Positions 3,268 through 32,175 of a stretch of 49,466 nt of DNA are shown one piece after another. The stretch lies in assembly GCA_009885845.1 (NCBI GenBank), contig VFJW01000019.1, forward strand, positions 1 through 49,466. Reading direction: 5' to 3'. Positions within the stretch are counted from its first letter, which is position 1. Each line of letters opens with the position of its first letter. The position numbers and the translations under genes are program-made. The DNA comes from Geobacter sp. (GTDB taxonomy: Bacteria; Desulfobacterota; Desulfuromonadia; Geobacterales; Pseudopelobacteraceae). Below the pieces are notes generated by a model that ran no database searches, had not been told where the DNA came from, and saw nothing but the letters and a program-made list of their open reading frames with translations.

Positions 3268-3342
3268 TGGGGCGTCGCCAAGCGGTAAGGCACCGGATTT
3301 TGATTCCGGCATTCCCAGGTTCGATCCCTGGCGCCCCAGCCA
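3268..3342 (+). tRNA. tRNA-Gln (anticodon TTG)
   Basis: The 75 bases fold as a full cloverleaf: acceptor TGGGGCG with CGCCCCA, D-loop GCCAAGCGGTAAGGC, anticodon stem CCGGA/TCCGG with loop TTTTGAT giving anticodon TTG, T-arm CCAGGTTCGATCCCTGG, and encoded CCA at 3340-3342. It matches the bacterial glutamine tRNA very closely. It lies 22 bases after ispE. Its 3' end marks the left border of the RiPP-like cluster; I found no second copy of the tRNA end near 11.7 kb. Confidence 0.97.
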
Positions 3343-3510: not shown

Positions 3511-4002
3511 ATGGCGAATTTGTCCGGCTTAAATACCTTTCATAAAATATGTTATATTTTTCATGCATTAGTTGCGATTGCGAAAGTTCAAATCGCCAGA
3601 AAGACAATTGATCAGGCTTTTCTTCGTCTTCCAACGACAAGCAATCATGCAACACAAGCATCCCGATTGGATGAAGAACAGGAACTGATCGATCTTGCTG
3701 ACCGGTGCACGAAACTCTTACTACGAAGAACAAGTCAACCATGTCTGTTCCAGTCATATGTCAGGGCGGTGGTATTGCGGCATGGCGGTTTCCCTGTTAT
3801 TATAAACATCGGAATGAGGAACATGGGGAGTTCTTCAGTATACGGCCACTGTTGGATTACTCTTAACGGTGTTCCTTGCCATGAAATAGAAAATGTAGAA
3901 ATTTCCTATCCGTTTTTATTGGGAACATCTGCAGTTGGAATCAGTTATTGGGCAGGATCTGTGGATACTAAAGAAATGATTCGCGCAAAAAGGGAGGAAT
4001 GA
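3511..4002 (+). CDS. Lasso-type leader peptidase (B2, transglutaminase-like fold)
   Basis: The 163-residue protein looks like a stand-alone lasso-peptide B2 protein (Transglut_core3 family). B2 proteins are cysteine proteases that remove the leader from the precursor, guided by the B1 partner. An N-terminal helical part (residues 10-75) precedes PCLFQS with the likely nucleophile Cys78, then the conserved GHCW with His113, in the usual spacing for the family. The acidic third residue is not certain; Glu125 is a candidate. The length is typical. The ATG at 3511 has only a weak ribosome site. It is followed four bases later by the B1 gene. Family membership is read from motifs; activity on the poly-Tyr precursor is inferred. 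Confidence 0.8.
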   Translation: MANLSGLNTFHKICYIFHALVAIAKVQIARKTIDQAFLRLPTTSNHATQASRLDEEQELIDLADRCTKLLLRRTSQPCLFQSYVRAVVLRHGGFPVIINIGMRNMGSSSVYGHCWITLNGVPCHEIENVEISYPFLLGTSAVGISYWAGSVDTKEMIRAKREE

Positions 4003-4006
4003 AGTA

Positions 4007-4345
4007 ATGACGATGGAGCGGGATAACAGGAAGCGTGAACCGAAACAGATTGTTACACTAAATGATCTTCCTGAAAAATTGGAAATTTCAGACGATATAT
4101 CCTGGCGTGACGTCAATGATGAGACCATTATATTGCATCTTAAGTCAGGGGAATACTTTACCCTTAATGATACAGCAAAATATTTGTGGAAAGGAATCTG
4201 TGAAGACAAGCAGCCTCGTGAGCTGGTTCTCTTGATGGCTCAGGATTATAACCTTAAACCTGAAGAAGTAGAATCTGATGTATTAGACTTTTTTGTGGGT
4301 CTAATGCAAAAAGATGTCTTTGTGTGGGGGGAGTTAAATCTATAG
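4007..4345 (+). CDS. PqqD-like leader-recognition protein (B1 / RRE)
   Basis: This 112-residue protein has the PqqD fold signature: SDDISWRDVNDETIILHLKSGEYFTLNDTAKYLWKGI, then PRELVLLMAQDYNLKPEEVESDVLDFFVGLMQKDVFVW. Such RiPP recognition elements bind the leader of the precursor and present it to the modifying enzymes; in lasso systems B1 delivers it to the B2 protease and the cyclase. About 25 charged residues precede the domain. A strong ribosome site AGGGAGGA (3991-3998) lies eight bases before the ATG at 4007. A second ATG two codons on (4013) is possible. The precursor gene starts 17 bases after the stop. Confidence 0.88.
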   Translation: MTMERDNRKREPKQIVTLNDLPEKLEISDDISWRDVNDETIILHLKSGEYFTLNDTAKYLWKGICEDKQPRELVLLMAQDYNLKPEEVESDVLDFFVGLMQKDVFVWGELNL

Positions 4346-4361
4346 AAAGGAGGGTACTTGC

Positions 4362-4463
4362 ATGAAACCTTATGAGAAGCCCAGTTTCGTTTGCCACAAG
4401 CCGTTAGAATCCGTCAGCGCAGCGTATTACTACTACTACTACTACTACTATTATTACTACTAA
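4362..4463 (+). CDS. RiPP precursor: lasso-like leader with a poly-tyrosine core
   Basis: This 33-codon ORF directly follows the B1 gene, with a strong ribosome site (AAAGGAGGG, 4346-4354) seven bases before its ATG. Residues 4-19 read YEKPSFVCHKPLESVS. They align without gaps to the lasso leader pattern YxxPxLxxxGxxxxxT: Y4, P7, F9 for Leu, K13 for Gly, S19 for Thr. By that rule the leader ends at Ala20, and the core is Ala21 followed by twelve consecutive tyrosines (22-33). No Asp or Glu exists in the core, so no lasso isopeptide ring can form. The Tyr codons are TAT, seven TAC, two TAT, two TAC (4425-4460), a trinucleotide repeat open to slippage in whole codons. I infer it is the substrate of the surrounding enzymes. 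Confidence 0.85.
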   Translation: MKPYEKPSFVCHKPLESVSAAYYYYYYYYYYYY

Positions 4464-4500
4464 GCCGCACCTCGCAACACACTGATTTGCAATTTCTTTT

Positions 4501-4528
4501 CCACGGGATCGGGTAACCGATCCCGTGG
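4501..4528 (+). terminator. Perfect 12-bp hairpin after the precursor gene
   Basis: Bases 4501-4512 (CCACGGGATCGG) and 4517-4528 are exact inverted repeats around a GTAA loop, 37 bases after the precursor stop. A weak T-rich stretch (TATATTTCT) follows and a T7 run comes at about 4544-4550. It probably acts as a partial terminator or as a 3' stabiliser, giving more precursor mRNA than mRNA for the enzymes downstream. No independent promoter is obvious before the next gene. Confidence 0.75.
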
Positions 4529-4587: not shown

Positions 4588-5676
4588 ATGGAGTCCCTTT
4601 GTTTTATGCAAACTAACACTCAAAGTGCACCAAAACTATACCGATTCCCTGATTTTGTCTTGAAGGTGAGTGGGAACCCTTCTCCGGTTAAGGAGTCCAT
4701 TGATAATATCTTCAGACTGTTTCCCATACCCTCCGATGTCAATTGCCGACAGATTGAGATGCGGGTGTGGGATTTACTGGACGAGGAAGCAACGATTCTT
4801 CCGGAATTCCTTTCGCAGTATCTCTCCACTCCGGAAACAATCGCCGAACCCACAATGGTTCAAGGTGAAAATGTTTCGATCGGATTTGTCCATGCCCATA
4901 ATGGCGTATTTACCGCCTGTTACTATATGCCTGAAGAATCACAGATCTATTTTGTTGCAACGATGGATAATTCCAGCAATTTCAGCGCAAATCAAGGTAC
5001 CAAGCAGCGTGCGAAGATAACCTTGTGTGTAACCTCCGTGCTTGTGCCGTTAATGCGGGAGCTCGTCCTTGAAAATCAGCGGATCCTGTTTCACTCTGCT
5101 GCCATTGCCTGCCCTGATGGCACCGGAATGCTCCTTTTTGCTGACTCGGGAGGAGGCAAGACCACAACTTCCCTGTGTCTTTTGCGACTTGGAGCCAAGC
5201 TACTTGGAGATGATCTTGTCATGGCGGGAGAAGAGAACGGCTCACTGTTTCTCCACGGATTCGCTGAACCGCTTAACCTGACGGAACAGACCATATCTTT
5301 TTTTGATGAACTTGCGTATCTTAAATCTCCGGAAACCCCTGTTGGCACTAAAGTCGTCTTTTCTCCCCAGGATGTCTACGGACCTTCCTGTTTTCAGGAA
5401 AAAGTCCCTCTGCATGTTGCTTATATCGTCCATAAAAGCCAGGGGACTCCTCACGTAGAACTGCTTTCCACGCAGGAGTCGCTGGGCTTTCTTCTCCGTG
5501 CTCATACATTTGCGAGATGTCAGAGTATTTCAAGAATTGCCCTGAACAGAATATATCAAATTCTTGATTCGGTACGTTTGTACCGCCTGCATACCGGCAG
5601 TGATCCGGTTGCTCTCGGAAAATGGCTTCTTGACTCGGCACATGACCATGCGCAAGGAACGTTTATCGGCCGATAG
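4588..5676 (+). CDS. HPr kinase-like protein of the RiPP cluster
   Basis: The 362-residue protein has a C-terminal HPr-kinase-like nucleotide-binding domain: FHSAA at 168-172, P-loop FADSGGGKTTTS at 184-195, and LGAKLLGDDLV at 201-211, the usual P-loop/DD pair. Related proteins in paeninodin-type lasso clusters phosphorylate the C-terminal residue of the precursor; that activity is known for the family, not shown here. The N-terminal 160 residues are not assigned. In this cluster the only hydroxyl acceptors in the core are tyrosines. The start may be ATG 4588 or ATG 4606; GGAG at 4590-4593 slightly favours the latter. It follows the hairpin at 4501-4528. Confidence 0.75.
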   Translation: MESLCFMQTNTQSAPKLYRFPDFVLKVSGNPSPVKESIDNIFRLFPIPSDVNCRQIEMRVWDLLDEEATILPEFLSQYLSTPETIAEPTMVQGENVSIGFVHAHNGVFTACYYMPEESQIYFVATMDNSSNFSANQGTKQRAKITLCVTSVLVPLMRELVLENQRILFHSAAIACPDGTGMLLFADSGGGKTTTSLCLLRLGAKLLGDDLVMAGEENGSLFLHGFAEPLNLTEQTISFFDELAYLKSPETPVGTKVVFSPQDVYGPSCFQEKVPLHVAYIVHKSQGTPHVELLSTQESLGFLLRAHTFARCQSISRIALNRIYQILDSVRLYRLHTGSDPVALGKWLLDSAHDHAQGTFIGR

Positions 5677-5757: not shown

Positions 5758-6852
5758 ATGCCCGTTTCCAGTATACATAATTATGACGGCGGCATATCCA
5801 CTGAGGGCCACTATCTCAGAAACCTGCTGGGTTCTTTTGTTCGCGAAGAGTCCTTTTCTGCTCTTCCTGAAGAAGGTCAATGGGACACAGTTGCCAGGCT
5901 CGCTCAAATGCAGACGATTGTTGCCATCTGCCGGCGAATGATTTCTTCTGATGCAATACCTGATGATATTCGACTCAACTGGGATCGTATCTGTGCAGGG
6001 AATTTTCTGGATACCTCCATGGCTCTTAACGGCACCAGACGCATTCTGACAGCCCTAGACAAGGGGGGAATTCAGGCGGCCGTACTCCGGGGAATCAGAA
6101 TGGCGCATGACATTTATCCTGATCCGGTTCTGCGGCCAATGGGGGATGTGGATATTCTTATTCCTCCCGATTCTCCTTCTACAGTAAGGAATCTCCTCGC
6201 TCAGGCGGGAATGCAGCCGGAGAAAATCCTCCGAAGCCAGCTTGTCTATCGTATCCACGGGAAAGAGTATGAAATTCATTGGAGCTATGTGACGCCACGT
6301 CGTTATCGTGGCGCTGCCAGCTTTCACTCATGGCTGAATGATACAATATCTGTAGCCACCCCCCAGGGGACCGTACGCGGTCTGAGCCTGGAGAACGAAT
6401 TACTGGGTCTGATCATCCACTCTTTTGTTCATCATGATTTGAATCGTGTTTCTCAAGCGGTTGACATCGCACTGGTTATGAAGAGAGAAAACCTCGACTG
6501 GGAGTATATTACCCAGTGGGCTGCAGATGCAGGACTGTCACGAATGATTGCGTTTGTTCTGGCCTATGTTGAATGGCTGTTCAGTATGCAGCCGGGCAAC
6601 TGGAGTTCCTGGAGCAACAGATTACTGCCCGCCGGCCACGAAGCTGTTTTTACTTCATATGCTTCACAGTCACTGGGCCAGGATGCCAGGGTACATTACC
6701 TCAGGCGCAAAGGCCATCTGCTTGACGTTGCCGAAACCTACCCCCGTAAGGCGAAACAGTTGCTGAGGTTTTTGACTCCGAAGGATCTGATGATTTTTGT
6801 TACTGTTTCTCTTTTTAATAACACAGGAAAACAAAATCCGGATAAATTGTAA
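5758..6852 (+). CDS. Nucleotidyltransferase-like protein (NTP_transf_5 type)
   Basis: The 364-residue protein carries the signature of the nucleotidyltransferase family often found in lasso clusters: AVLRGIRMAHDIYPDPVLRPMGDVDILI at about residues 108-135, with the metal-binding D130 and D132. HGKEYEIHW and the later helical region FVHHDLNRVSQAVDIALVM also fit. Its substrate is unknown. Polymerase-beta-fold enzymes such as GlnE and GlnD nucleotidylate tyrosine hydroxyls, which is suggestive next to a poly-Tyr precursor but unproven. The ATG at 5758 has only a weak GAG upstream. The 81-base gap before it contains no ORF. Confidence 0.75.
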   Translation: MPVSSIHNYDGGISTEGHYLRNLLGSFVREESFSALPEEGQWDTVARLAQMQTIVAICRRMISSDAIPDDIRLNWDRICAGNFLDTSMALNGTRRILTALDKGGIQAAVLRGIRMAHDIYPDPVLRPMGDVDILIPPDSPSTVRNLLAQAGMQPEKILRSQLVYRIHGKEYEIHWSYVTPRRYRGAASFHSWLNDTISVATPQGTVRGLSLENELLGLIIHSFVHHDLNRVSQAVDIALVMKRENLDWEYITQWAADAGLSRMIAFVLAYVEWLFSMQPGNWSSWSNRLLPAGHEAVFTSYASQSLGQDARVHYLRRKGHLLDVAETYPRKAKQLLRFLTPKDLMIFVTVSLFNNTGKQNPDKL

Positions 6853-6948
6853 AAACTATCAATTGTTAGAACAGACGTCATGTCTGGATTTTGAAACGCT
6901 GGTGATGTCCGGTCCGTAATGCTGTATTTTTTTTATCGGGGTTAAATC

Positions 6949-8859
6949 ATGTGTGGTATATGCGGCATTGTTGACTTTTCAGGTCGTACTATCGATCCGG
7001 TTGAAAGGGATCTGTTAACTCGACGAATGCTGAAACGATTGCACCATCGAGGGCCGGATCACAGCGATGTGTATTCTGACAGCATTGCTTCAATAGGCGT
7101 GGCACGACTCTCTGTTCTTGACAGGTCTGTCGCCGGTAACCAACCGATGCGCAGCTCTTCAGGTCGTTATGTTCAGGCTTTCAACGGTGAAATCTATAAC
7201 TGTAATGCCCTCCGAACATCTATGGAAAACAGGGGTGCTACTTTTGCTTCACACAGTGACACGGAAGTATTATTGAGCCTTTTTGAAGCGTACGGCGAAG
7301 CATGTCTTAATGACTTACGCGGGATGTTTGCGTTTGCAGTCTGGGATCGGGAAAGCCGTTCACTTTTCCTTGCCCGTGACAGGGCCGGAGAAAAACCTTT
7401 GGTTTACTCGTACCATAACGGTTGTTTTGCCTTTGCTTCGGAAATAGGAGCTCTGCTGGAATTGCCCTGGATATCCCGGGAACCTGACTGGGTAGGCATC
7501 CATCATGGAATTCATTTTATTCATATTCCTGCGCCGCATTCAGCATTTAAAGATATCTCCAAATTACCTCCCGCAACCTCGCTTACCGTTAATGATAACG
7601 GACTTGCATTCAACCGGTACTGGAAATTACGCTTTGATCAAAAATACGGCCCGGATGACAAGGATAAATGCTGTCGCGACATTATTGAGGAACTTGATGA
7701 AATCACCTCCCTGATGAGCCATTGTGATGTTCCAGTCGGGACGTTCCTGTCGGGAGGTCTTGATTCAAGTTCTGTCACTGCATCACTTGCAAACGTGTTA
7801 TCAGGATTCCCGACCTTCAGAATCAGCCATCCCGGTCCGGAGGATGAAAAAGAGAGTGCTGCAGCAGCGGAGGTAGCTTCTCGTTATGGCACAAAACATA
7901 ACAATCTGAGTATGAGGCCGGATATCCTTCATAACATCCGTGATTTTGTCGCGACGCACGGAGAACCAACAGGGACAATGGTAGCGCTCGATTACTATCG
8001 TCTTGCCAACATGGCAAGCAAACAGGTTACCGTAATACTTTCAGGTAATGGCGCTGATGAAATGTTTGGCGGATATGACCTGAATGTAATGGAAGAAATT
8101 GACCGGAGCAGAGTTCACTGGGCTGCTTTACGTGAAATATTGGGAGATCAGGGAACTCACTCTTCATCACAGTCAGGTCTTATGGACTTTGCATCCAGAA
8201 TGCGCGAAATTGATGCCAGAGGCCCTCAATTACTGTATGCTGACAGGTATCTTACTCGAGGCAGGAGTTTTGCGTCTTCCGCTTATACTCCGCAGATGAC
8301 TGAACTGACATCCCGGCATAACCCGGAACAACTAATGGTTGATCGTTACATTGAAGCAGATACCGGCTTGCTTTTTAATGCGACGGTGTATCAAATGCTG
8401 AATTTGACATGTCAATACAGCCTGGTTGACCATAGCGATGCGTGTGCGATGGCGAGCTCACTTGAAGTAAGATCCCCGTTCCTTGATGTTCGAATGATGG
8501 AATTAGCCGCTTCAATTCCACCCGCATGGAAAGTCGGACAGCGGGGAAATGAACAATTCGGGAAAATGATCTTGCGGGAAGCCATGGCCAAACGTTTGCC
8601 CGATTCTGCACGGTTTGGTGTTAAACTCGGTTTTGGCGGTACCGTGCCATACGGAGACTGGCTTCGCAATGAATGGGACAATGTAATTGACAGGGACGCA
8701 TTAGCTGCTACCGGGATGTTTGATGTTCAAAAAATTGATCAGATGGTACAGCATGATTTACGGGAGCAGCCTAAGCTTGCGCATATGCTTTTTAATATTT
8801 TAACCATCGGAACCTGGTATTCCATGTACAATAATTCAACTGCCCCACGGCTCATCTAA
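6949..8859 (+). CDS. Asparagine synthetase-like amidotransferase/cyclase (C protein homologue)
   Basis: This 636-residue protein has a class II glutaminase domain followed by an ATP-pyrophosphatase domain. Glutaminase residues are intact: Cys2 after the start Met (MCGICGIV), ARLS at 52-55, NGEIYN at 79-84 and SDTE at 103-106. The synthetase P-loop SGGLDSSS lies at 268-275, and GNGADEMFGGYD follows. In lasso pathways a homologue adenylates an Asp/Glu side chain and closes the macrolactam. Here the core offers only its C-terminal carboxylate, and the working glutaminase site points to ammonia transfer. C-terminal amidation or head-to-tail closure is therefore a possible reaction (inference). 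It could be an ordinary AsnB, but its location between RiPP genes argues against that. The start has GGGG eight bases upstream. Confidence 0.82.
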   Translation: MCGICGIVDFSGRTIDPVERDLLTRRMLKRLHHRGPDHSDVYSDSIASIGVARLSVLDRSVAGNQPMRSSSGRYVQAFNGEIYNCNALRTSMENRGATFASHSDTEVLLSLFEAYGEACLNDLRGMFAFAVWDRESRSLFLARDRAGEKPLVYSYHNGCFAFASEIGALLELPWISREPDWVGIHHGIHFIHIPAPHSAFKDISKLPPATSLTVNDNGLAFNRYWKLRFDQKYGPDDKDKCCRDIIEELDEITSLMSHCDVPVGTFLSGGLDSSSVTASLANVLSGFPTFRISHPGPEDEKESAAAAEVASRYGTKHNNLSMRPDILHNIRDFVATHGEPTGTMVALDYYRLANMASKQVTVILSGNGADEMFGGYDLNVMEEIDRSRVHWAALREILGDQGTHSSSQSGLMDFASRMREIDARGPQLLYADRYLTRGRSFASSAYTPQMTELTSRHNPEQLMVDRYIEADTGLLFNATVYQMLNLTCQYSLVDHSDACAMASSLEVRSPFLDVRMMELAASIPPAWKVGQRGNEQFGKMILREAMAKRLPDSARFGVKLGFGGTVPYGDWLRNEWDNVIDRDALAATGMFDVQKIDQMVQHDLREQPKLAHMLFNILTIGTWYSMYNNSTAPRLI

Positions 8860-8868
8860 GGAGAAGTA

Positions 8869-9870
8869 ATGCCAAATATCCTGATTACCAATGTCTGTTA
8901 TCGTGCCTGTACCTTCTGTTTTGCCCGTCAGCGCCTCGGCGATGGCGCTCAGGAAGGTTCGACCATTCATATGTCGAGAGAGAATATTCGCTATGTCATG
9001 GATTTTCTTGATCGCTCAAATGATAAAAATCTGCGCCTCCTCGGAGGAGAACCGTCACAACATCCCGAATTCGTCGAGATTGTTAAAGAGGCATTGGAAC
9101 GTAATTTTCATGTGCACATTTTTACCAATGGCATGATGACACACGAAATAGCCGACTATCTGGGGGGGCTTACTCATGAACAGTTTTCCGCACTGTGCAA
9201 TGTGTCACCGCAAGCCACTCTTACCGAAGCACAAAAGGAGGATGTCGAGTATTTTTTAAGCAAGGTCGGTCACAAAGCGGGATTGGGCATTACGGTGACT
9301 TCGGAAGACATCCAGTATGAATACCTTATTGACACGATAAAAAGACATAATCTCGGCAAGCAGATCCGGGTAGGTATTGCCCAGCCTATTGTCGGCGTAT
9401 CAAATGAATTTCTGCCGGTGAGTAATTACAAGACCATCGGAACAGCAATTCTTGCTATGGCCAGAAACCTTATTGAGCATGATATTATGATAGGTTTTGA
9501 CTGCGGAATGACCATGTGCATGTTTTCTGAAGAAGAACTGGGCGGTATTATAACCTCATCGAGGGGATTTGACAGTATATGTACTCCCGTAATGGATATT
9601 GGGCCAAACCTTGATGTCTGGAGTTGTTTCCCGTTGTCGGAAGTGCTCAATACCCGTCTGGACCAGTTTGATACCGTTAAAGAACTAAGTGATTACTATA
9701 CCAATCAACTTCTGCCCTATAAACAATTCGGCTGCATGCCTGAATGCATGGATTGTGCGTATCTTCGCAGGAAGCAATGCAGCGGAGGGTGCGTTGCTCA
9801 AACGATGCTTACGTTCAACAGGCTCCCGTCGAAAAAGGGACGTCCGCCGCAGGAAAAACCTGCAGTTTGA
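8869..9870 (+). CDS. Radical SAM/SPASM-like enzyme of the RiPP cluster
   Basis: The 333-residue protein begins almost at once with the radical SAM cluster motif CYRACTFC (C10, C14, C17). LLGGEPSQHPEF supplies the SAM-binding GGEP. The C-terminus has a cysteine-rich SPASM-like region: C289, C293, C296, C304 and C308 (CMPECMDC then CSGGC), with SCFP before it. Such enzymes bind extra iron-sulfur clusters and often make carbon-carbon or carbon-heteroatom links in peptides. A tyrosine-modifying role (crosslink or cleavage) is inferred from the precursor next door. It starts nine bases after the asparagine synthetase gene with AAGGAG upstream, so it is cotranscribed. Confidence 0.82.
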   Translation: MPNILITNVCYRACTFCFARQRLGDGAQEGSTIHMSRENIRYVMDFLDRSNDKNLRLLGGEPSQHPEFVEIVKEALERNFHVHIFTNGMMTHEIADYLGGLTHEQFSALCNVSPQATLTEAQKEDVEYFLSKVGHKAGLGITVTSEDIQYEYLIDTIKRHNLGKQIRVGIAQPIVGVSNEFLPVSNYKTIGTAILAMARNLIEHDIMIGFDCGMTMCMFSEEELGGIITSSRGFDSICTPVMDIGPNLDVWSCFPLSEVLNTRLDQFDTVKELSDYYTNQLLPYKQFGCMPECMDCAYLRRKQCSGGCVAQTMLTFNRLPSKKGRPPQEKPAV

Positions 9871-9881
9871 GGCGAAGAGGC

Positions 9882-11723
9882 ATGTTGATCAACCTTGTTT
9901 CTATTCATGCATGCCCTTCTCCACAATCAATTCCACTGGCAAACGCTTTCCTTAAGGCGTATGCGCTTGAGAGCGCCGTTGCTGTCAGTCTGGTTGATTT
10001 TTTTCTCGGAGATGAGGTAGCAGAATGCACTGCGAAGCTGGTTGAGCCACTGCCTGTTGCTGTTGGTTTTTCAATGTACCTCTGGAATCGTACTTTCATC
10101 TGTGCACTTGCAGACGAATTGCGACGGAAACATCCTGACATCATACTTTTTTGTGGAGGTCCGGAAGTTACCGCTGATCCCGAATCAATTTTGAGCAGGG
10201 GGAACTTCGACTTCGTTATAACCGGCGAAGGAGAGGTCCCCTTTTTATCACTCTGCCAGGTTCTCAAAGATGACGGAGATTATTCTGAAATCGCCGGAGT
10301 ACTGCTCCCCGGCCATGGCAATCCCCCTCCCCCTCCCCCGTTACCAAACCTGGATTCAATTCCTTCTCCGTACCTGACGGGGGTGCTTGACACTCACGCA
10401 TTCACCGGTATTCTCTGGCAATTATCACGGGGCTGCAGTTTCACGTGTGACTTCTGTTTTGATGCACGAGGAATTCATGGCGTCCGCCATTTTTCTCTGG
10501 AACGACTGGAAGAGGAATTACGGCTTTTCGCCGCGACAGGCGTCAGGCAGATTTTTGTGCTTGATTCAACCTTCAACCTGAATCCAAAGCGTGCGAAAAA
10601 AATTCTCCGGATGATTGAGAAAAATGCGCCTGACATTCATTTTCATTTTGAGGTTCGTAATGAATTTATTGATCGTGAAATGGCACAGCTCTTTACCAGA
10701 ATTGCATGTTCATTGCAGATCGGACTGCAAAGCGCCGACCCGGAGGTACTGAAACTGGTAGGGCGAACTTTTAACAAAGCTGATTTTACTACCAAGGTCG
10801 GACTGTTGAATGAAAGTGGTGCTATTTTCGGCTTCGATCTGATGTATGGACTGCCGGGCGACACTCTGGAAGGGTTCCGCGGATCTCTGGACTATGCTCT
10901 GTCTCTCTATCCGAATCATCTTGATATTTTTCCGCTGGCGGTGTTACCGGGAACGCGTCTGGCCTCTCGCGGTTACGCCTTGAATTTAACATGGGATGCC
11001 TTGCCTCCCTATGTTCTTGTAGCTTCTAACAGTTTCAATTCGGCAGACATGGCAACTGCTGCCGGACTGGCTGCTGCATGTGACATTTTTTACACCCGCG
11101 GTAAAGCGGTCGCATGGTTTAATGCCGTGATTGCCCTGTTAGGCTTGAAACCATCAGTATTTTTACAAAAATTCAGTATCTGGCTGATTGAACACCAGGG
11201 CCATGACTCTCAAGAGACAGACTTTAGTGATACTGACATCTTGCTCCTTCAGCAGCAGTTTTTGAAGGAGCTCCTCAACAGCAAAAAAACAAAGCGATTT
11301 CTGCCTCTTGTGCTCGATATCGTTAATTATCATTATTTCTATGCTTCCGTACTTCTCGATCCCCCACCGGAACCAGGCGAAAATTCACAGATGTCATACA
11401 ACCTGGGAAATATATGTTTCAGGCTTGCTTCATCTGCCAGAATAGTTCATTTTTCGTACGAAATTGAAGAACTTCTCGAATGTGGAGAACCACGTATCGC
11501 CTGGATGTACGAACATCTCTCACCAGCCGTGTCGGCAGCAGTTATCTATAATAATGGCGGGACAGTGTGCACCGAATCTTTGGCAGATCCCTACATCACA
11601 CTGTTGGAACAGATACGGGATGGGGACGGCGGACTAAGCGTATCAGAAGCCGGTCTCACTCATGAGGAAGCTGATGAGTTCTTTGAATTTGCACTGAAGG
11701 AAGGAATCCTTCTGAAAACATGA
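9882..11723 (+). CDS. B12-binding-type radical SAM enzyme
   Basis: The N-terminal part (about 1-130) resembles a cobalamin-binding domain: VAVGFSMYLWNRTF and DIILFCGGPEVTADPESIL...FVITGEGE. The radical SAM motif is CSFTCDFC (C185, C189, C192), then FVLDSTFNLNPKRAKKIL and DLMYGLPGDTLEGF as in the Elp3/MiaB-like core. The C-terminal 250 residues are not assigned. A run of seven prolines (148-154) links the two domains. B12 radical SAM enzymes commonly methylate unactivated carbons. I chose ATG 9882 (613 residues) because GAGG lies nine bases upstream, the family N-terminus starts there, and the longer frame would overlap the previous gene by about 130 bases. It is the last gene of the cluster. 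Confidence 0.82.
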   Translation: MLINLVSIHACPSPQSIPLANAFLKAYALESAVAVSLVDFFLGDEVAECTAKLVEPLPVAVGFSMYLWNRTFICALADELRRKHPDIILFCGGPEVTADPESILSRGNFDFVITGEGEVPFLSLCQVLKDDGDYSEIAGVLLPGHGNPPPPPPLPNLDSIPSPYLTGVLDTHAFTGILWQLSRGCSFTCDFCFDARGIHGVRHFSLERLEEELRLFAATGVRQIFVLDSTFNLNPKRAKKILRMIEKNAPDIHFHFEVRNEFIDREMAQLFTRIACSLQIGLQSADPEVLKLVGRTFNKADFTTKVGLLNESGAIFGFDLMYGLPGDTLEGFRGSLDYALSLYPNHLDIFPLAVLPGTRLASRGYALNLTWDALPPYVLVASNSFNSADMATAAGLAAACDIFYTRGKAVAWFNAVIALLGLKPSVFLQKFSIWLIEHQGHDSQETDFSDTDILLLQQQFLKELLNSKKTKRFLPLVLDIVNYHYFYASVLLDPPPEPGENSQMSYNLGNICFRLASSARIVHFSYEIEELLECGEPRIAWMYEHLSPAVSAAVIYNNGGTVCTESLADPYITLLEQIRDGDGGLSVSEAGLTHEEADEFFEFALKEGILLKT

Positions 11724-11765
11724 CAAAAACAACTATTAATTACGATCCCGTAACTTCGAAAGAGG

Positions 11766-11794
11766 TTGCATTTTGGTAAATATTTTAGTATAGC
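11766..11794 (+). promoter_or_regulatory. Putative sigma70 promoter of prs
   Basis: TTGCAT at 11766-11771 and TATAGC at 11789-11794 are separated by 17 bases in the AT-rich gap before prs. The match is moderate. It would restart transcription after the RiPP-like cluster. Confidence 0.4.
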
Positions 11795-11854
11795 TTCTAT
11801 TTCTTTTGCCTGTAAATTTCACGCCAGTGCTATTGCGAAAGGTGATTACTCACC

Positions 11855-12799
11855 ATGTATGAAAAAATAAAGATATTTTCCGGCAATTCAAATCCGGATC
11901 TGGCTCAAAAAATATGTGACAGCCTCGGCGTTCCACTTGGTTCGGCCAGAGTTCGACGCTTCTCCGATGGTGAGGTTATGGTCGAAATCGGCGAAAATGT
12001 CCGTGGCCGTGACGTGTATATCGTCCAATCGACCTGTGCTCCAACTAATGACAACCTGATGGAACTGCTGGTTATAACCGATGCTCTGAAACGTGCTTCA
12101 GCTGCGACGATAACCGCGGTTATTCCTTATTACGGCTACGCCCGTCAGGATCGCAAGGCCGCGCCGCGGACTCCGATCACCGCCAAACTTGTTGCTGACC
12201 TTATCACAACGGCAGGAGTCAACAGGGTTGTGACCATTGATCTCCATGCCGGACAGATTCAGGGTTTTTTCAATATTCCGGTGGACAATCTGTATGCCGC
12301 ACCGGTTATTCTCAATTATCTTAAAGACCGTTTCAGCGGAGAACAGGTGGTCATGGTTTCTCCTGACGCCGGCGGTACAGAAAGAGCCAGAGCGTTTGCA
12401 AAACGCCTTGAATATTCGCTTGCTGTTATTGACAAGCGCCGCACCGGTCCTAATGTAGCGGAAGTTATGCACCTGATCGGCGATGTTAGAGATAAAATTG
12501 CCATTATCCTTGATGACATGATTGACACGGCCGGCACCCTGACTCAGGCGGCCAAGGCATTAAAAGCAAACGGCGCCAAAGCCATCTATGCCTGCGCCAC
12601 ACACGGAGTACTTTCGGGTCCTGCAATCGAGCGGATCAATGCATCGGATATCGAAGAGGTTGTTTTAACCGATACTATTCCCGGTAACTACGGAGATGTA
12701 ATTACAACAAAAATAAGAATGCTTTCTGTGGCAGATCTGTTGGCAGAAGCGATCAGGCGCATCCATGAGGATGAGTCAGTCAGTTCGCTTTTTGTATAG
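11855..12799 (+). CDS. prs: Ribose-phosphate pyrophosphokinase
   Basis: Prs makes PRPP from ribose 5-phosphate and ATP, feeding nucleotide, histidine and tryptophan synthesis. The 314-residue protein has [13 protein letters not shown] at the N-terminus, the ATP-binding region [25 protein letters not shown], the catalytic [32 protein letters not shown], and the PRPP loop [14 protein letters not shown]. The length is normal for class I enzymes. GAAAGGTGA precedes the ATG. It begins a core block with rplY, pth and ychF. Confidence 0.96.
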
Positions 12800-12860
12800 A
12801 ATATCAATTTTGAATTAAGCATAGGACGGGATCGACCCGTCACTACACGTGGAGGAACGT

Positions 12861-13445
12861 ATGCAACAGAAACAAATGAATATTGAACTGCGCACCAAAA
12901 CCGGTACCGGCGTAAGTCGTAGACTCCGTATGGCAGATATGATACCTGGAGTTGTGTATGGCAAGGGTCTTGACCCGGTTACCGTCAGCATTAAAAGCCG
13001 TGATCTACAGGATGCGATTTCCGGGGCAGGCGGACAAAACAACCTGATCACTTTGATTGGCGGAGGCAGCCTCGACCAGTGCATTGCTATCGTTGCTGAT
13101 ATTCAACGTGATGCGATCAAGCGCACCTTCAAGCATGTTGATCTTCATCGAATCAATCCGAACGAGAAACTCCGGATCACGGTTCCTGTTGTATTGAAAG
13201 GCACTGCTATCGGCGTAAAAGAAGGAGGTCTTCTCGATCTTGCTCATCATGAACTGCATATCGAATGCCTCCCGGCACATATCCCGGACAATATTTGCAT
13301 CGATGTATCTGAGCTTAAAATTGCCCACTCGATTCATGTCAGCGACATTATCCTGCCTGTCGGTATCGTTATTCTTGACCAGGCAAAAATCCCTGTTGTC
13401 AGCGTTCTTGGCAGAGCCAAGGAAGATGCTCCTGCAGCAGCGTAA
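12861..13445 (+). CDS. rplY: 50S ribosomal protein L25 (long, Ctc type)
   Basis: The 194-residue protein has the 5S rRNA-binding L25 domain ([27 protein letters not shown], residues 8-34) followed by the TL5/Ctc C-terminal beta domain ([45 protein letters not shown]). I chose ATG 12861 because GGAGG at 12851-12855 sits just before it; the earlier in-frame GTG would place that site inside the gene. It lies between prs and pth, a very common order. Confidence 0.94.
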
Positions 13446-31413: not shown

Positions 31414-31806
31414 CTACGTATTCAGGTGTTTTTCTACGCTTGTCACAAACTCTTCAGCAATAGGCCTGATTTCTTCGATATCTTTGGTGGTCACTTCGGT
31501 CTCTTCCATGTAATCCCCCTTTTGGCGCAGTGCAAAGGCCCGATGAAGTGCCTTCGACATCTCCTTGGTGAAACTACCGGTCTTCACGTATTCCCTGTCG
31601 AAAAGAGCAATCGCCCCGGAATGCTTTGACGTTCCCAGTTCCTTTTCCTGTAACAGGGCAAGTACCGCGTAGAACATGGCGTAATAGAGTCGGTTCATGA
31701 CCGATCGCAGGCTCATGTCTGATTGGAGCAGGACATCGGCTTCCCTGATGGAATCCCTGGCCTGTGTAAGCCGATATTCTATCAGAGCCATTCTATTAGC
31801 GGTCAT
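31414..31806 (-). CDS. HEPN-domain protein (putative toxin of a MNT/HEPN pair)
   Basis: The 130-residue all-helical protein has the HEPN hallmarks NRLYYAMFYAVLALL (38-52) and FALRQKGDYM (91-100). HEPN proteins paired with MNT proteins are RNase toxins neutralised by adenylylation or binding. In related sequences the stretch reads R-x6-H; here the His position is Tyr46 (R39-x6-Y46), so ribonuclease activity is doubtful. Its ATG overlaps the MNT stop by four bases. The stop codon abuts the island border repeat. The family call is firm; toxicity is inferred. Confidence 0.85.
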   Translation of the reverse strand: MTANRMALIEYRLTQARDSIREADVLLQSDMSLRSVMNRLYYAMFYAVLALLQEKELGTSKHSGAIALFDREYVKTGSFTKEMSKALHRAFALRQKGDYMEETEVTTKDIEEIRPIAEEFVTSVEKHLNT

Positions 31807-32117
31807 ACAGTAATGCCCTCACGATACACATTGAGAATGAACACCGACTCTTTGAGTACTCCGTTAATTTTGTCCTGGCCGACAACTACCGGGATGACAA
31901 CCACATCCTGATCGAAGCCAGCCTCCCATGCACAGTCACTGACATACTTTTCAATGTCTCGTGTTGCGTGTTCGACAACTACAAATACGTCAAGGTCTGA
32001 ATCCGCCGAAGCGTCACCACGGGCACGGGAGCCGAATACCCGTACATCCAGGGGTGTCACCCGTTGCTGGACGAGTTGTTTGAAGGTACGGGCTATGTTG
32101 AGGTCTTTGCTGTTCAT
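31803..32117 (-). CDS. MNT-domain nucleotidyltransferase (putative antitoxin)
   Basis: The 104-residue protein is a minimal nucleotidyltransferase with the motif FGSRARGDASADSDLDVFVV (G29, S30, D41, D43) and a later DQDVVVIPVVV strand carrying the likely third Asp. In MntA/HepT systems the MNT protein adenylylates a Tyr of the HEPN toxin. I chose ATG 32117; the longer frame from 32153 is possible, and neither start has a well-placed ribosome site. It is the first gene of the pair. Confidence 0.83.
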   Translation of the reverse strand: MNSKDLNIARTFKQLVQQRVTPLDVRVFGSRARGDASADSDLDVFVVVEHATRDIEKYVSDCAWEAGFDQDVVVIPVVVGQDKINGVLKESVFILNVYREGITV

Positions 32118-32175
32118 TGGTTCACTGTATATCAGCCTCCATTGACTTGGCAAGATTCAAATGGATGAGAAGGAA

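What the first reader, a model, noticed from the sequence alone, without database searches (positions are those of the whole stretch)
4362..4463. A RiPP precursor with a lasso leader but a core of one Ala and twelve Tyr
Seen: a 33-codon gene with a strong ribosome site, between the B1 gene and an HprK-like gene. Its leader aligns gap-free to the lasso pattern (Y4, P7, F9, S19) and its end is twelve tyrosines. Known: lasso folding needs an Asp or Glu at core position 7-9 to join the N-terminus. Inference: the pathway makes something other than a lasso, a modified oligo-tyrosine. I know of no characterised product of this kind.
Basis: partly seen in the sequence, partly recalled or inferred. Interest (0 to 1): 0.95.

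Follow-up and report, generated by a model that had tools for sequence, protein, structure and literature searches.

The report
Peptide precursor with tyrosine-only tail
A tiny bacterial gene makes a peptide whose product end is one alanine followed by twelve tyrosines; relatives in six other genomes have a tyrosine tail beside the same set of modifying enzymes, so this looks like an undescribed class of enzyme-modified peptide and not a lasso peptide.

Summary
Window 4362-4463 encodes MKPYEKPSFVCHKPLESVSA|AY12 behind AGGAGG, between B1 and an HprK-like gene. It is not chance: precursors with 6-7 consecutive Tyr lie beside B1 and HprK homologues in six other genomes (Desulfobulbaceae MAGs, Desulfamplus magnetovallimortis, a 'Nitrospirae' MAG). 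Two were found through B1, four through a V-S-x-x-Tyr pattern. Of 116 pattern matches (capped scan), six have the leader Tyr/Pro in register, and exactly those six have B1 and HprK nearby. Among four relatives, tail codons differ only as TAC/TAT (0 of 19 differences replace Tyr). All seven clusters share B1, HprK, NTP_transf_5 and a B12-radical-SAM gene; another radical-SAM gene (49-53% identical) and B2 are in the six whose contigs reach. The AsnB-like gene, the only lasso-cyclase candidate, is in the window's cluster alone, and none of eight cores has Asp or Glu. Best reading: a RiPP with lasso-type leader handling whose oligo-tyrosine core is modified by radical-SAM enzymes, with kinase/nucleotidyltransferase tailoring. 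Chemistry and product are inferred. The listings of six literature searches showed no such RiPP.

The parts
4348..4353 (+). AGGAGG ribosome-binding site, 8 bases before the ATG
   Evidence: read
4362..4421 (+). predicted leader peptide MKPYEKPSFVCHKPLESVSA (Y-17, P-14, F-12, S-2)
   Evidence: register compared with PMC10368454; cleavage site inferred
4422..4463 (+). predicted core Ala-Tyr12 and stop; Tyr codons 4425-4460
4007..4345 (+). B1: PqqD-type leader-binding protein (RRE)
   Evidence: PF05402, 7e-14; lasso PqqD models matched below cut-off
3511..4002 (+). B2: lasso-type leader peptidase; Cys and GHCW kept in five aligned homologues
   Evidence: (NF033537, 37.4 bits, cut-off 33)
4501..4528 (+). 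12-bp terminator-like hairpin between precursor and HprK gene
   Evidence: (z -2.85)
4588..5676 (+). HprK-like kinase; H169, G188, G190, K191, D208, D209 invariant in seven aligned homologues
   Evidence: (all below cut-off)
5758..6852 (+). NTP_transf_5 nucleotidyltransferase
   Evidence: 1.2e-40
6949..8859 (+). asparagine-synthase-like amidotransferase (above the TIGR01536 cut-off), not found in the relatives' clusters
8869..9870 (+). radical SAM protein; CxxxCxxC plus nine further Cys invariant in five aligned homologues (SPASM-like spacing, by eye)
9870..11723 (+). B12-binding radical SAM protein; nearest solved structures by sequence TokK and CysS

Best explanation
The gene is the precursor of a RiPP family with lasso-type leader handling and a nearly pure tyrosine core. 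B1 binds the YxxPxF...PLxSVS leader; the conserved radical-SAM protein and the B12 radical-SAM protein (plus, in 5 of 7 clusters, a third radical-SAM protein) modify the tyrosines, most likely by aryl cross-links and/or C-methylation; HprK and NTP_transf_5 add phosphate or a phosphate-linked group; B2 cuts after S-x (here after A20), releasing a product derived from Ala-Tyr12. Shown: the gene, its family, the shared tail and gene set. Inferred: translation, the cleavage site, every chemical step and the function.
For: Six homologous precursors in other genomes; the seven share Y4, P7, P14, L15, V18, S19 and Tyr22-27; Y4, P7, P14, L15 were not part of any search pattern. 6 of 116 pattern hits have the leader register; the same six have B1 and HprK, none of the other 110 has either at E 1e-5. 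Tail codons of four relatives: 19 differences over six pairs, 0 replacing; 6 of 7 Tyr columns use both codons. B1 is only 27-28% identical to the window's in the two relatives aligned, yet those two, found through B1, have the tail. Gene set: B1, HprK, NTP_transf_5, B12-radical-SAM in 7 of 7; radical SAM (49-53% identity) and B2 in 6 of 6 assessable. Precursor alignment against 395 phylum genomes: 3 of 395 hit, the window's and two that also have the cluster. Two more distant clusters with an HprK and two radical-SAM homologues have short YxxP-leader ORFs ending GGGYYH and GSTYYH. One relative has a second precursor, ending GYTYYSRYW.
Against: No product, transcript or translation data. Four of the six relatives (G550, G591, G594, G595) were found by a pattern that demands V18, an S-type codon and the Tyr run, so those columns are partly invariant by construction; and four of the six (G312, G260, G550, G591) are one family, so they are not independent. 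Tyr tails are not universal among homologous enzymes: the radical-SAM homologues of G619/G621 sit with YYH-ended ORFs, and no precursor was recognised beside those of G331 or the B1 homologue of G483. The window's cluster lacks the third radical-SAM gene: in its genome the query finds only the window's own radical-SAM gene (1.2e-7) and a partial match at 9e-6. Its 12 Tyr include a (TAC)7 run, so the length may be slippage. The protein-database search with a 40-residue query found nothing; that such short ORFs are not called is a guess. A studied HprK-like lasso kinase phosphorylated Ser or Thr and not Tyr (PMC10368454, section 23), and the window's core has no Ser/Thr. The radical-SAM fold model is poor (mean pLDDT 57), so no fold search was made.
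Confidence: 0.72

Rival explanations
1. Cofactor-type pathway: as with PQQ or mycofactocin (recalled), the tyrosines are excised and become one or several small molecules, the run giving several copies per precursor.
For: PqqD-type B1 with radical-SAM genes; tail length varies 6-12.
Against: B2-type peptidase and, in two clusters, ABC exporter genes point to a released peptide; the tails of two relatives also carry Trp, Thr or Ile.
Confidence: 0.12
2. The tail is an anchor for phosphate and sugars: HprK and NTP_transf_5 act as in phosphoglycosylated lasso peptides, and the radical-SAM proteins act on the attached group.
For: HprK and NTP_transf_5 in 7 of 7 clusters; kinase motif kept; precedent of kinase plus nucleotidyltransferase in pseudomycoidin (PMC8498205, passages); a glycosyltransferase gene beside one cluster.
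Against: The related kinase BsfK did not accept Tyr; would need a tyrosine-active HprK.
Confidence: 0.12
3. The window's copy is a decayed or drifting member: the 12-Tyr tract is a repeat expansion and the cluster, lacking the third radical-SAM gene, makes little.
For: (TAC)7 run in the window against mixed codons in relatives; third radical-SAM gene missing.
Against: Ribosome site, leader and the other genes are open and intact; Desulfamplus also lacks the third gene.
Confidence: 0.03
4. An ordinary or unthreaded lasso/macrolactam peptide made by the AsnB-like protein.
For: B1, B2, leader register, AsnB-like gene in the window.
Against: No Asp/Glu in eight of eight cores; AsnB not found in the other six clusters, one of them cut by its contig end; AsnB passes the asparagine synthase cut-off (TIGR01536, 384 against 267 bits) but scores 214 against 525 and 51 against 300 for two lasso cyclase models.
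Confidence: 0.01

Closest known systems
Phosphorylated lasso peptides with split B1/B2 and an HprK homologue (paeninodin, BsfA; PMC8498205 passages, PMC10368454 passages and section 23)
   Same: leader register, B1, B2, HprK-like kinase, sometimes a nucleotidyltransferase
   Different: no Asp/Glu acceptor, no conserved cyclase, tyrosine core, radical-SAM genes added
Radical-SAM/SPASM RiPPs (ranthipeptide PapB and WgkB models; triceptides recalled)
   Same: radical-SAM protein with many C-terminal Cys beside a leader-binding protein and a short precursor
   Different: none of the 25 NCBIfam models listed (58 matched) reaches its cut-off; no Cys in the predicted core; poly-Tyr core
PQQ and mycofactocin (recalled)
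   Same: PqqD-type protein plus radical SAM, chemistry involving Tyr
   Different: lasso-type B2, kinase, B12 radical SAM; PqqD and mycofactocin maturase models only far below cut-off

Membership tests
Lasso peptide | YxxPxL-type leader at -17 to -12 | tested here: met
   Tyr and Pro in 7 of 7; Phe (6) or Cys (1) in place of Leu (spacing)
Lasso peptide | Thr (rarely Ile/Val) at leader position -2 | tested here: not met
   Ser in 7 of 7, partly by construction of the search pattern
Lasso peptide | Asp or Glu in the core at 7-9 | tested here: not met
   none in 8 of 8 cores; the two YYH-ended sister ORFs are not counted, one of them has an Asp
Lasso peptide | AsnB-type cyclase in the cluster | tested here: not met
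   1 of 7 clusters; that one below both lasso cyclase cut-offs and above the asparagine synthase one
Lasso peptide | B1 and B2 proteins | tested here: met
   B1 7 of 7, B2 6 of 6 assessable
HprK-type precursor kinase | H-G-G-G-K-S-D-D motif | tested here: met
   His, second and third Gly, Lys, both Asp invariant in 7 of 7; first Gly is Ala in 6 of 7 and Ser is Thr in 7 of 7 (motif)
HprK-type precursor kinase | phosphorylates Ser/Thr of the core | tested here: not met
   no Ser/Thr in the window's predicted core; Thr in five of seven cores; activity not testable
SPASM radical-SAM RiPP maturase | CxxxCxxC and C-terminal auxiliary-cluster cysteines | tested here: inconclusive
   CxxxCxxC and nine more invariant Cys, but no SPASM model among the Pfam hits and a poor fold model
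Any named precursor family | match to a Pfam or NCBIfam model | tested here: not met
   NCBIfam: none for the window's and seven other precursors given, sister ORFs included; Pfam: none, or two far below cut-off
RiPP | modified peptide product | not testable with these tools
   needs expression and mass spectrometry

The most novel reading that the evidence does not exclude
The first RiPP class built on a homopolymeric tyrosine core: radical-SAM enzymes turn a ribosomal oligo-tyrosine into a cross-linked, possibly C-methylated and phosphate-capped polyphenol ladder, a genetically encoded redox-active or metal-binding oligomer.
Probability: 0.3. Interest if true: 0.95.

Novelty: new variant of a known kind. 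Interest (0 to 1): 0.82.

Why it matters
A core of one repeated residue is unlike the RiPP substrates I know, and it gives a simple system for asking how radical-SAM enzymes choose among identical residues. It also suggests that lasso-type leader machinery serves a pathway without a lasso cyclase, and that such 29-33-codon genes may be missed by gene calling.

Tried and rejected
Chance or microsatellite: rejected by leader register, gene set and silent tail changes. Other reading frames: in the two other forward frames no start with a ribosome site recurs across the seven loci. Lasso: see membership test. B1 searches in close relatives gave 3 other genomes of 147 and 3 of 141; the loci read are other PqqD systems. 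The first genome-contig scan with the B1 alignment matched 78 stretches and confirmed none. Of 11 genomes hit with the radical-SAM profile, 8 at E 1e-67 to 1e-79 show no B1/HprK hit and no clear precursor in the DNA held (one piece is only 3.5 kb) and were dropped; G331 (5e-98) has B2 and B12-radical-SAM genes but no precursor recognised in its 6.4-kb contig. The B1 homologue of G483 has no recognised precursor. Viral contigs: 3 pattern hits, none with the leader. Plasmids: no DNA match for 4007-4500; one radical-SAM match at 30%, its neighbours not searched for a precursor. Literature: searches showed no poly-Tyr RiPP; I saw titles and abstract beginnings, the lists of 50, 63 and 92 were cut (20 of 26, 25 of 34, 10 of 26), and the library holds open-licence papers only. 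The radical-SAM fold model was too poor to search; the HprK model never started.

Full report
OBSERVATION. Window 4362-4463 (+) encodes MKPYEKPSFVCHKPLESVSAAYYYYYYYYYYYY and a TAA stop, with AGGAGG eight bases before the ATG. Upstream are B2 (3511-4002, NF033537 37.4 bits against a cut-off of 33) and B1 (4007-4345, PF05402); downstream an HprK-like gene, NTP_transf_5, an asparagine-synthase-like gene, a radical-SAM gene and a B12-binding radical-SAM gene. Five consecutive Tyr codons occur only here in the 3.27-Mb, 99%-complete assembly.

RELATIVES. A B1 profile run over 395 genomes of the phylum hit 22, the window's included; in two others a short ORF follows B1: MKKSYVAPQFFKHNPLESVSATY7 and ...SSTY7. 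These two were found without asking for tyrosine. A DNA pattern (V, S-type codon, x, x, Tyr5) in 73 genomes of their family hit 4 of 73, all four coding for such precursors, including MSKLNYEAPQFTCHEPLESVSFTY7. Six of 116 have Tyr at -18 and Pro at -15 from the first tail Tyr (46 positions had an open frame that far upstream); the same six, and no others, have B1 and HprK homologues in the DNA held. They are Desulfobulbaceae MAGs (L082, L113), a MAG titled only 'bacterium' (L112), L158 (title not shown to me), a 'Nitrospirae' MAG with tail QWY7WY (L114) and Desulfamplus magnetovallimortis with tail TTY6TYTYIW (L122). L082, L112, L113 and L158 match the four genomes, judged by identical ORFs, equal contig numbers and, for L112 and L113, contig lengths. 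So there are six other genomes, seven with the window; four of the six are one family. Because the pattern demands V18, an S-type codon and the Tyr run, those columns are partly invariant by construction in the four pattern-found members; Y4, P7, P14 and L15 and the neighbouring genes are not.

SELECTION. Among four relatives the seven tail codons differ at 19 places over six pairs, never changing Tyr; 6 of 7 columns contain both TAC and TAT. Two of these four were chosen by the pattern; the pair found through B1 alone differs at 3 of 7 tail codons, all silent. Over leader and tail of the three closest, 42 of 46 base changes are at third positions. TAC/TAT is also silent in the Leu frame, so the tail alone does not fix the frame; the leader does (silent/replacing 10/1, 12/1, 10/0 in the Tyr frame; 0-2 silent and 9-12 replacing in the others). 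With the more distant G591 the leader counts are 9/8, 6/8 and 5/8.

GENE SET. B1, HprK, NTP_transf_5 and B12-radical-SAM are in 7 of 7 clusters (G312's B12 gene is cut by its contig end; G594's NTP_transf_5 is only 21% identical but meets Pfam's model). The radical-SAM gene (49-53% identical in four relatives, 52% in Desulfamplus) and B2 are in 6 of 6 where the contig reaches. Order varies: in G591 B2 lies about 9 kb downstream on the other strand, in G594 the radical-SAM gene is on the other strand, and in Desulfamplus the enzymes lie 14-19 kb from the precursor behind other genes. A third radical-SAM gene of 467-520 aa sits in 5 of 7, not in the window or Desulfamplus. The AsnB-like gene is in the window only. 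One relative has a second precursor ending GYTYYSRYW. In the 24 genomes of G594's phylum, 3 of 24 have the radical-SAM gene at E 1e-75 or better: G594 and two whose clusters hold HprK and two radical-SAM homologues and short YxxP-leader ORFs that end GGGYYH and GSTYYH; no B1 was found there by blastp at E 1e-4. A terminator-like hairpin follows the precursor in the window (z -2.85); strong stems followed by T runs are seen in G312 and G550, in G260 the stretch folded ends at such a stem, and none is clear in G591, G594 or G595.

MECHANISM. The leader register equals that of a studied lasso precursor, where B1 speeds the kinase and assists the peptidase. With no acidic residue in any core and no conserved cyclase, a lasso is very unlikely. 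The most constant enzymes besides the B pair are the kinase, the nucleotidyltransferase and two radical-SAM proteins. The window's predicted core offers only Tyr and one Ala, so whatever acts on side chains of the core most likely acts on tyrosine. Radical-SAM action on the rings is my leading inference; the B12 protein is nearest to TokK and CysS, known to me as C-methyltransferases.

LIMITS. No expression data; cleavage site and chemistry are inferred; the one fold model, from five sequences, was poor; the protein-database search with the lengthened precursor found nothing. Prevalence is low: 3 of 395 phylum genomes by precursor profile, the window's included.

Noticed in passing
window 4501-4528: 12-bp hairpin with a weak T run right after the precursor gene, a likely attenuator between precursor and enzymes.
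   Followed up: partly
window 3268-3339: A tRNA gene (anticodon looks like TTG, Gln, by eye) directly before the cluster, which ends before a gene that looks like ribose-phosphate pyrophosphokinase; possible insertion point of the cluster.
   Followed up: no
L198:6967-7122 and L199:9799-9951: Short ORFs with YxxP leader ending GGGYYH / GSTYYH beside radical-SAM and HprK homologues: a likely sister RiPP family.
   Followed up: partly
L173:8866-8955: Second precursor MAKLNCQAPQFTLHEPLEPAGYTYYSRYW right after the poly-Tyr one, without the SVS motif.
   Followed up: partly
L207 and L172 (Desulfamplus contig): About ten ORFs with no match to the cluster's proteins lie between the HprK/ABC part and the NTP_transf_5/radical-SAM part.
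   Followed up: no
L042:17962-18705: Rce1-like (CAAX-type) protease gene just after B2; a gene of similar size lies there in L174.
   Followed up: no
L211 (Chlorohelix plasmid) 6339-12898: Three radical-SAM genes together, one 30% identical to the window's.
   Followed up: no
window 31414-32153: Two small genes that look by eye like a HEPN/MNT toxin-antitoxin pair.
   Followed up: no
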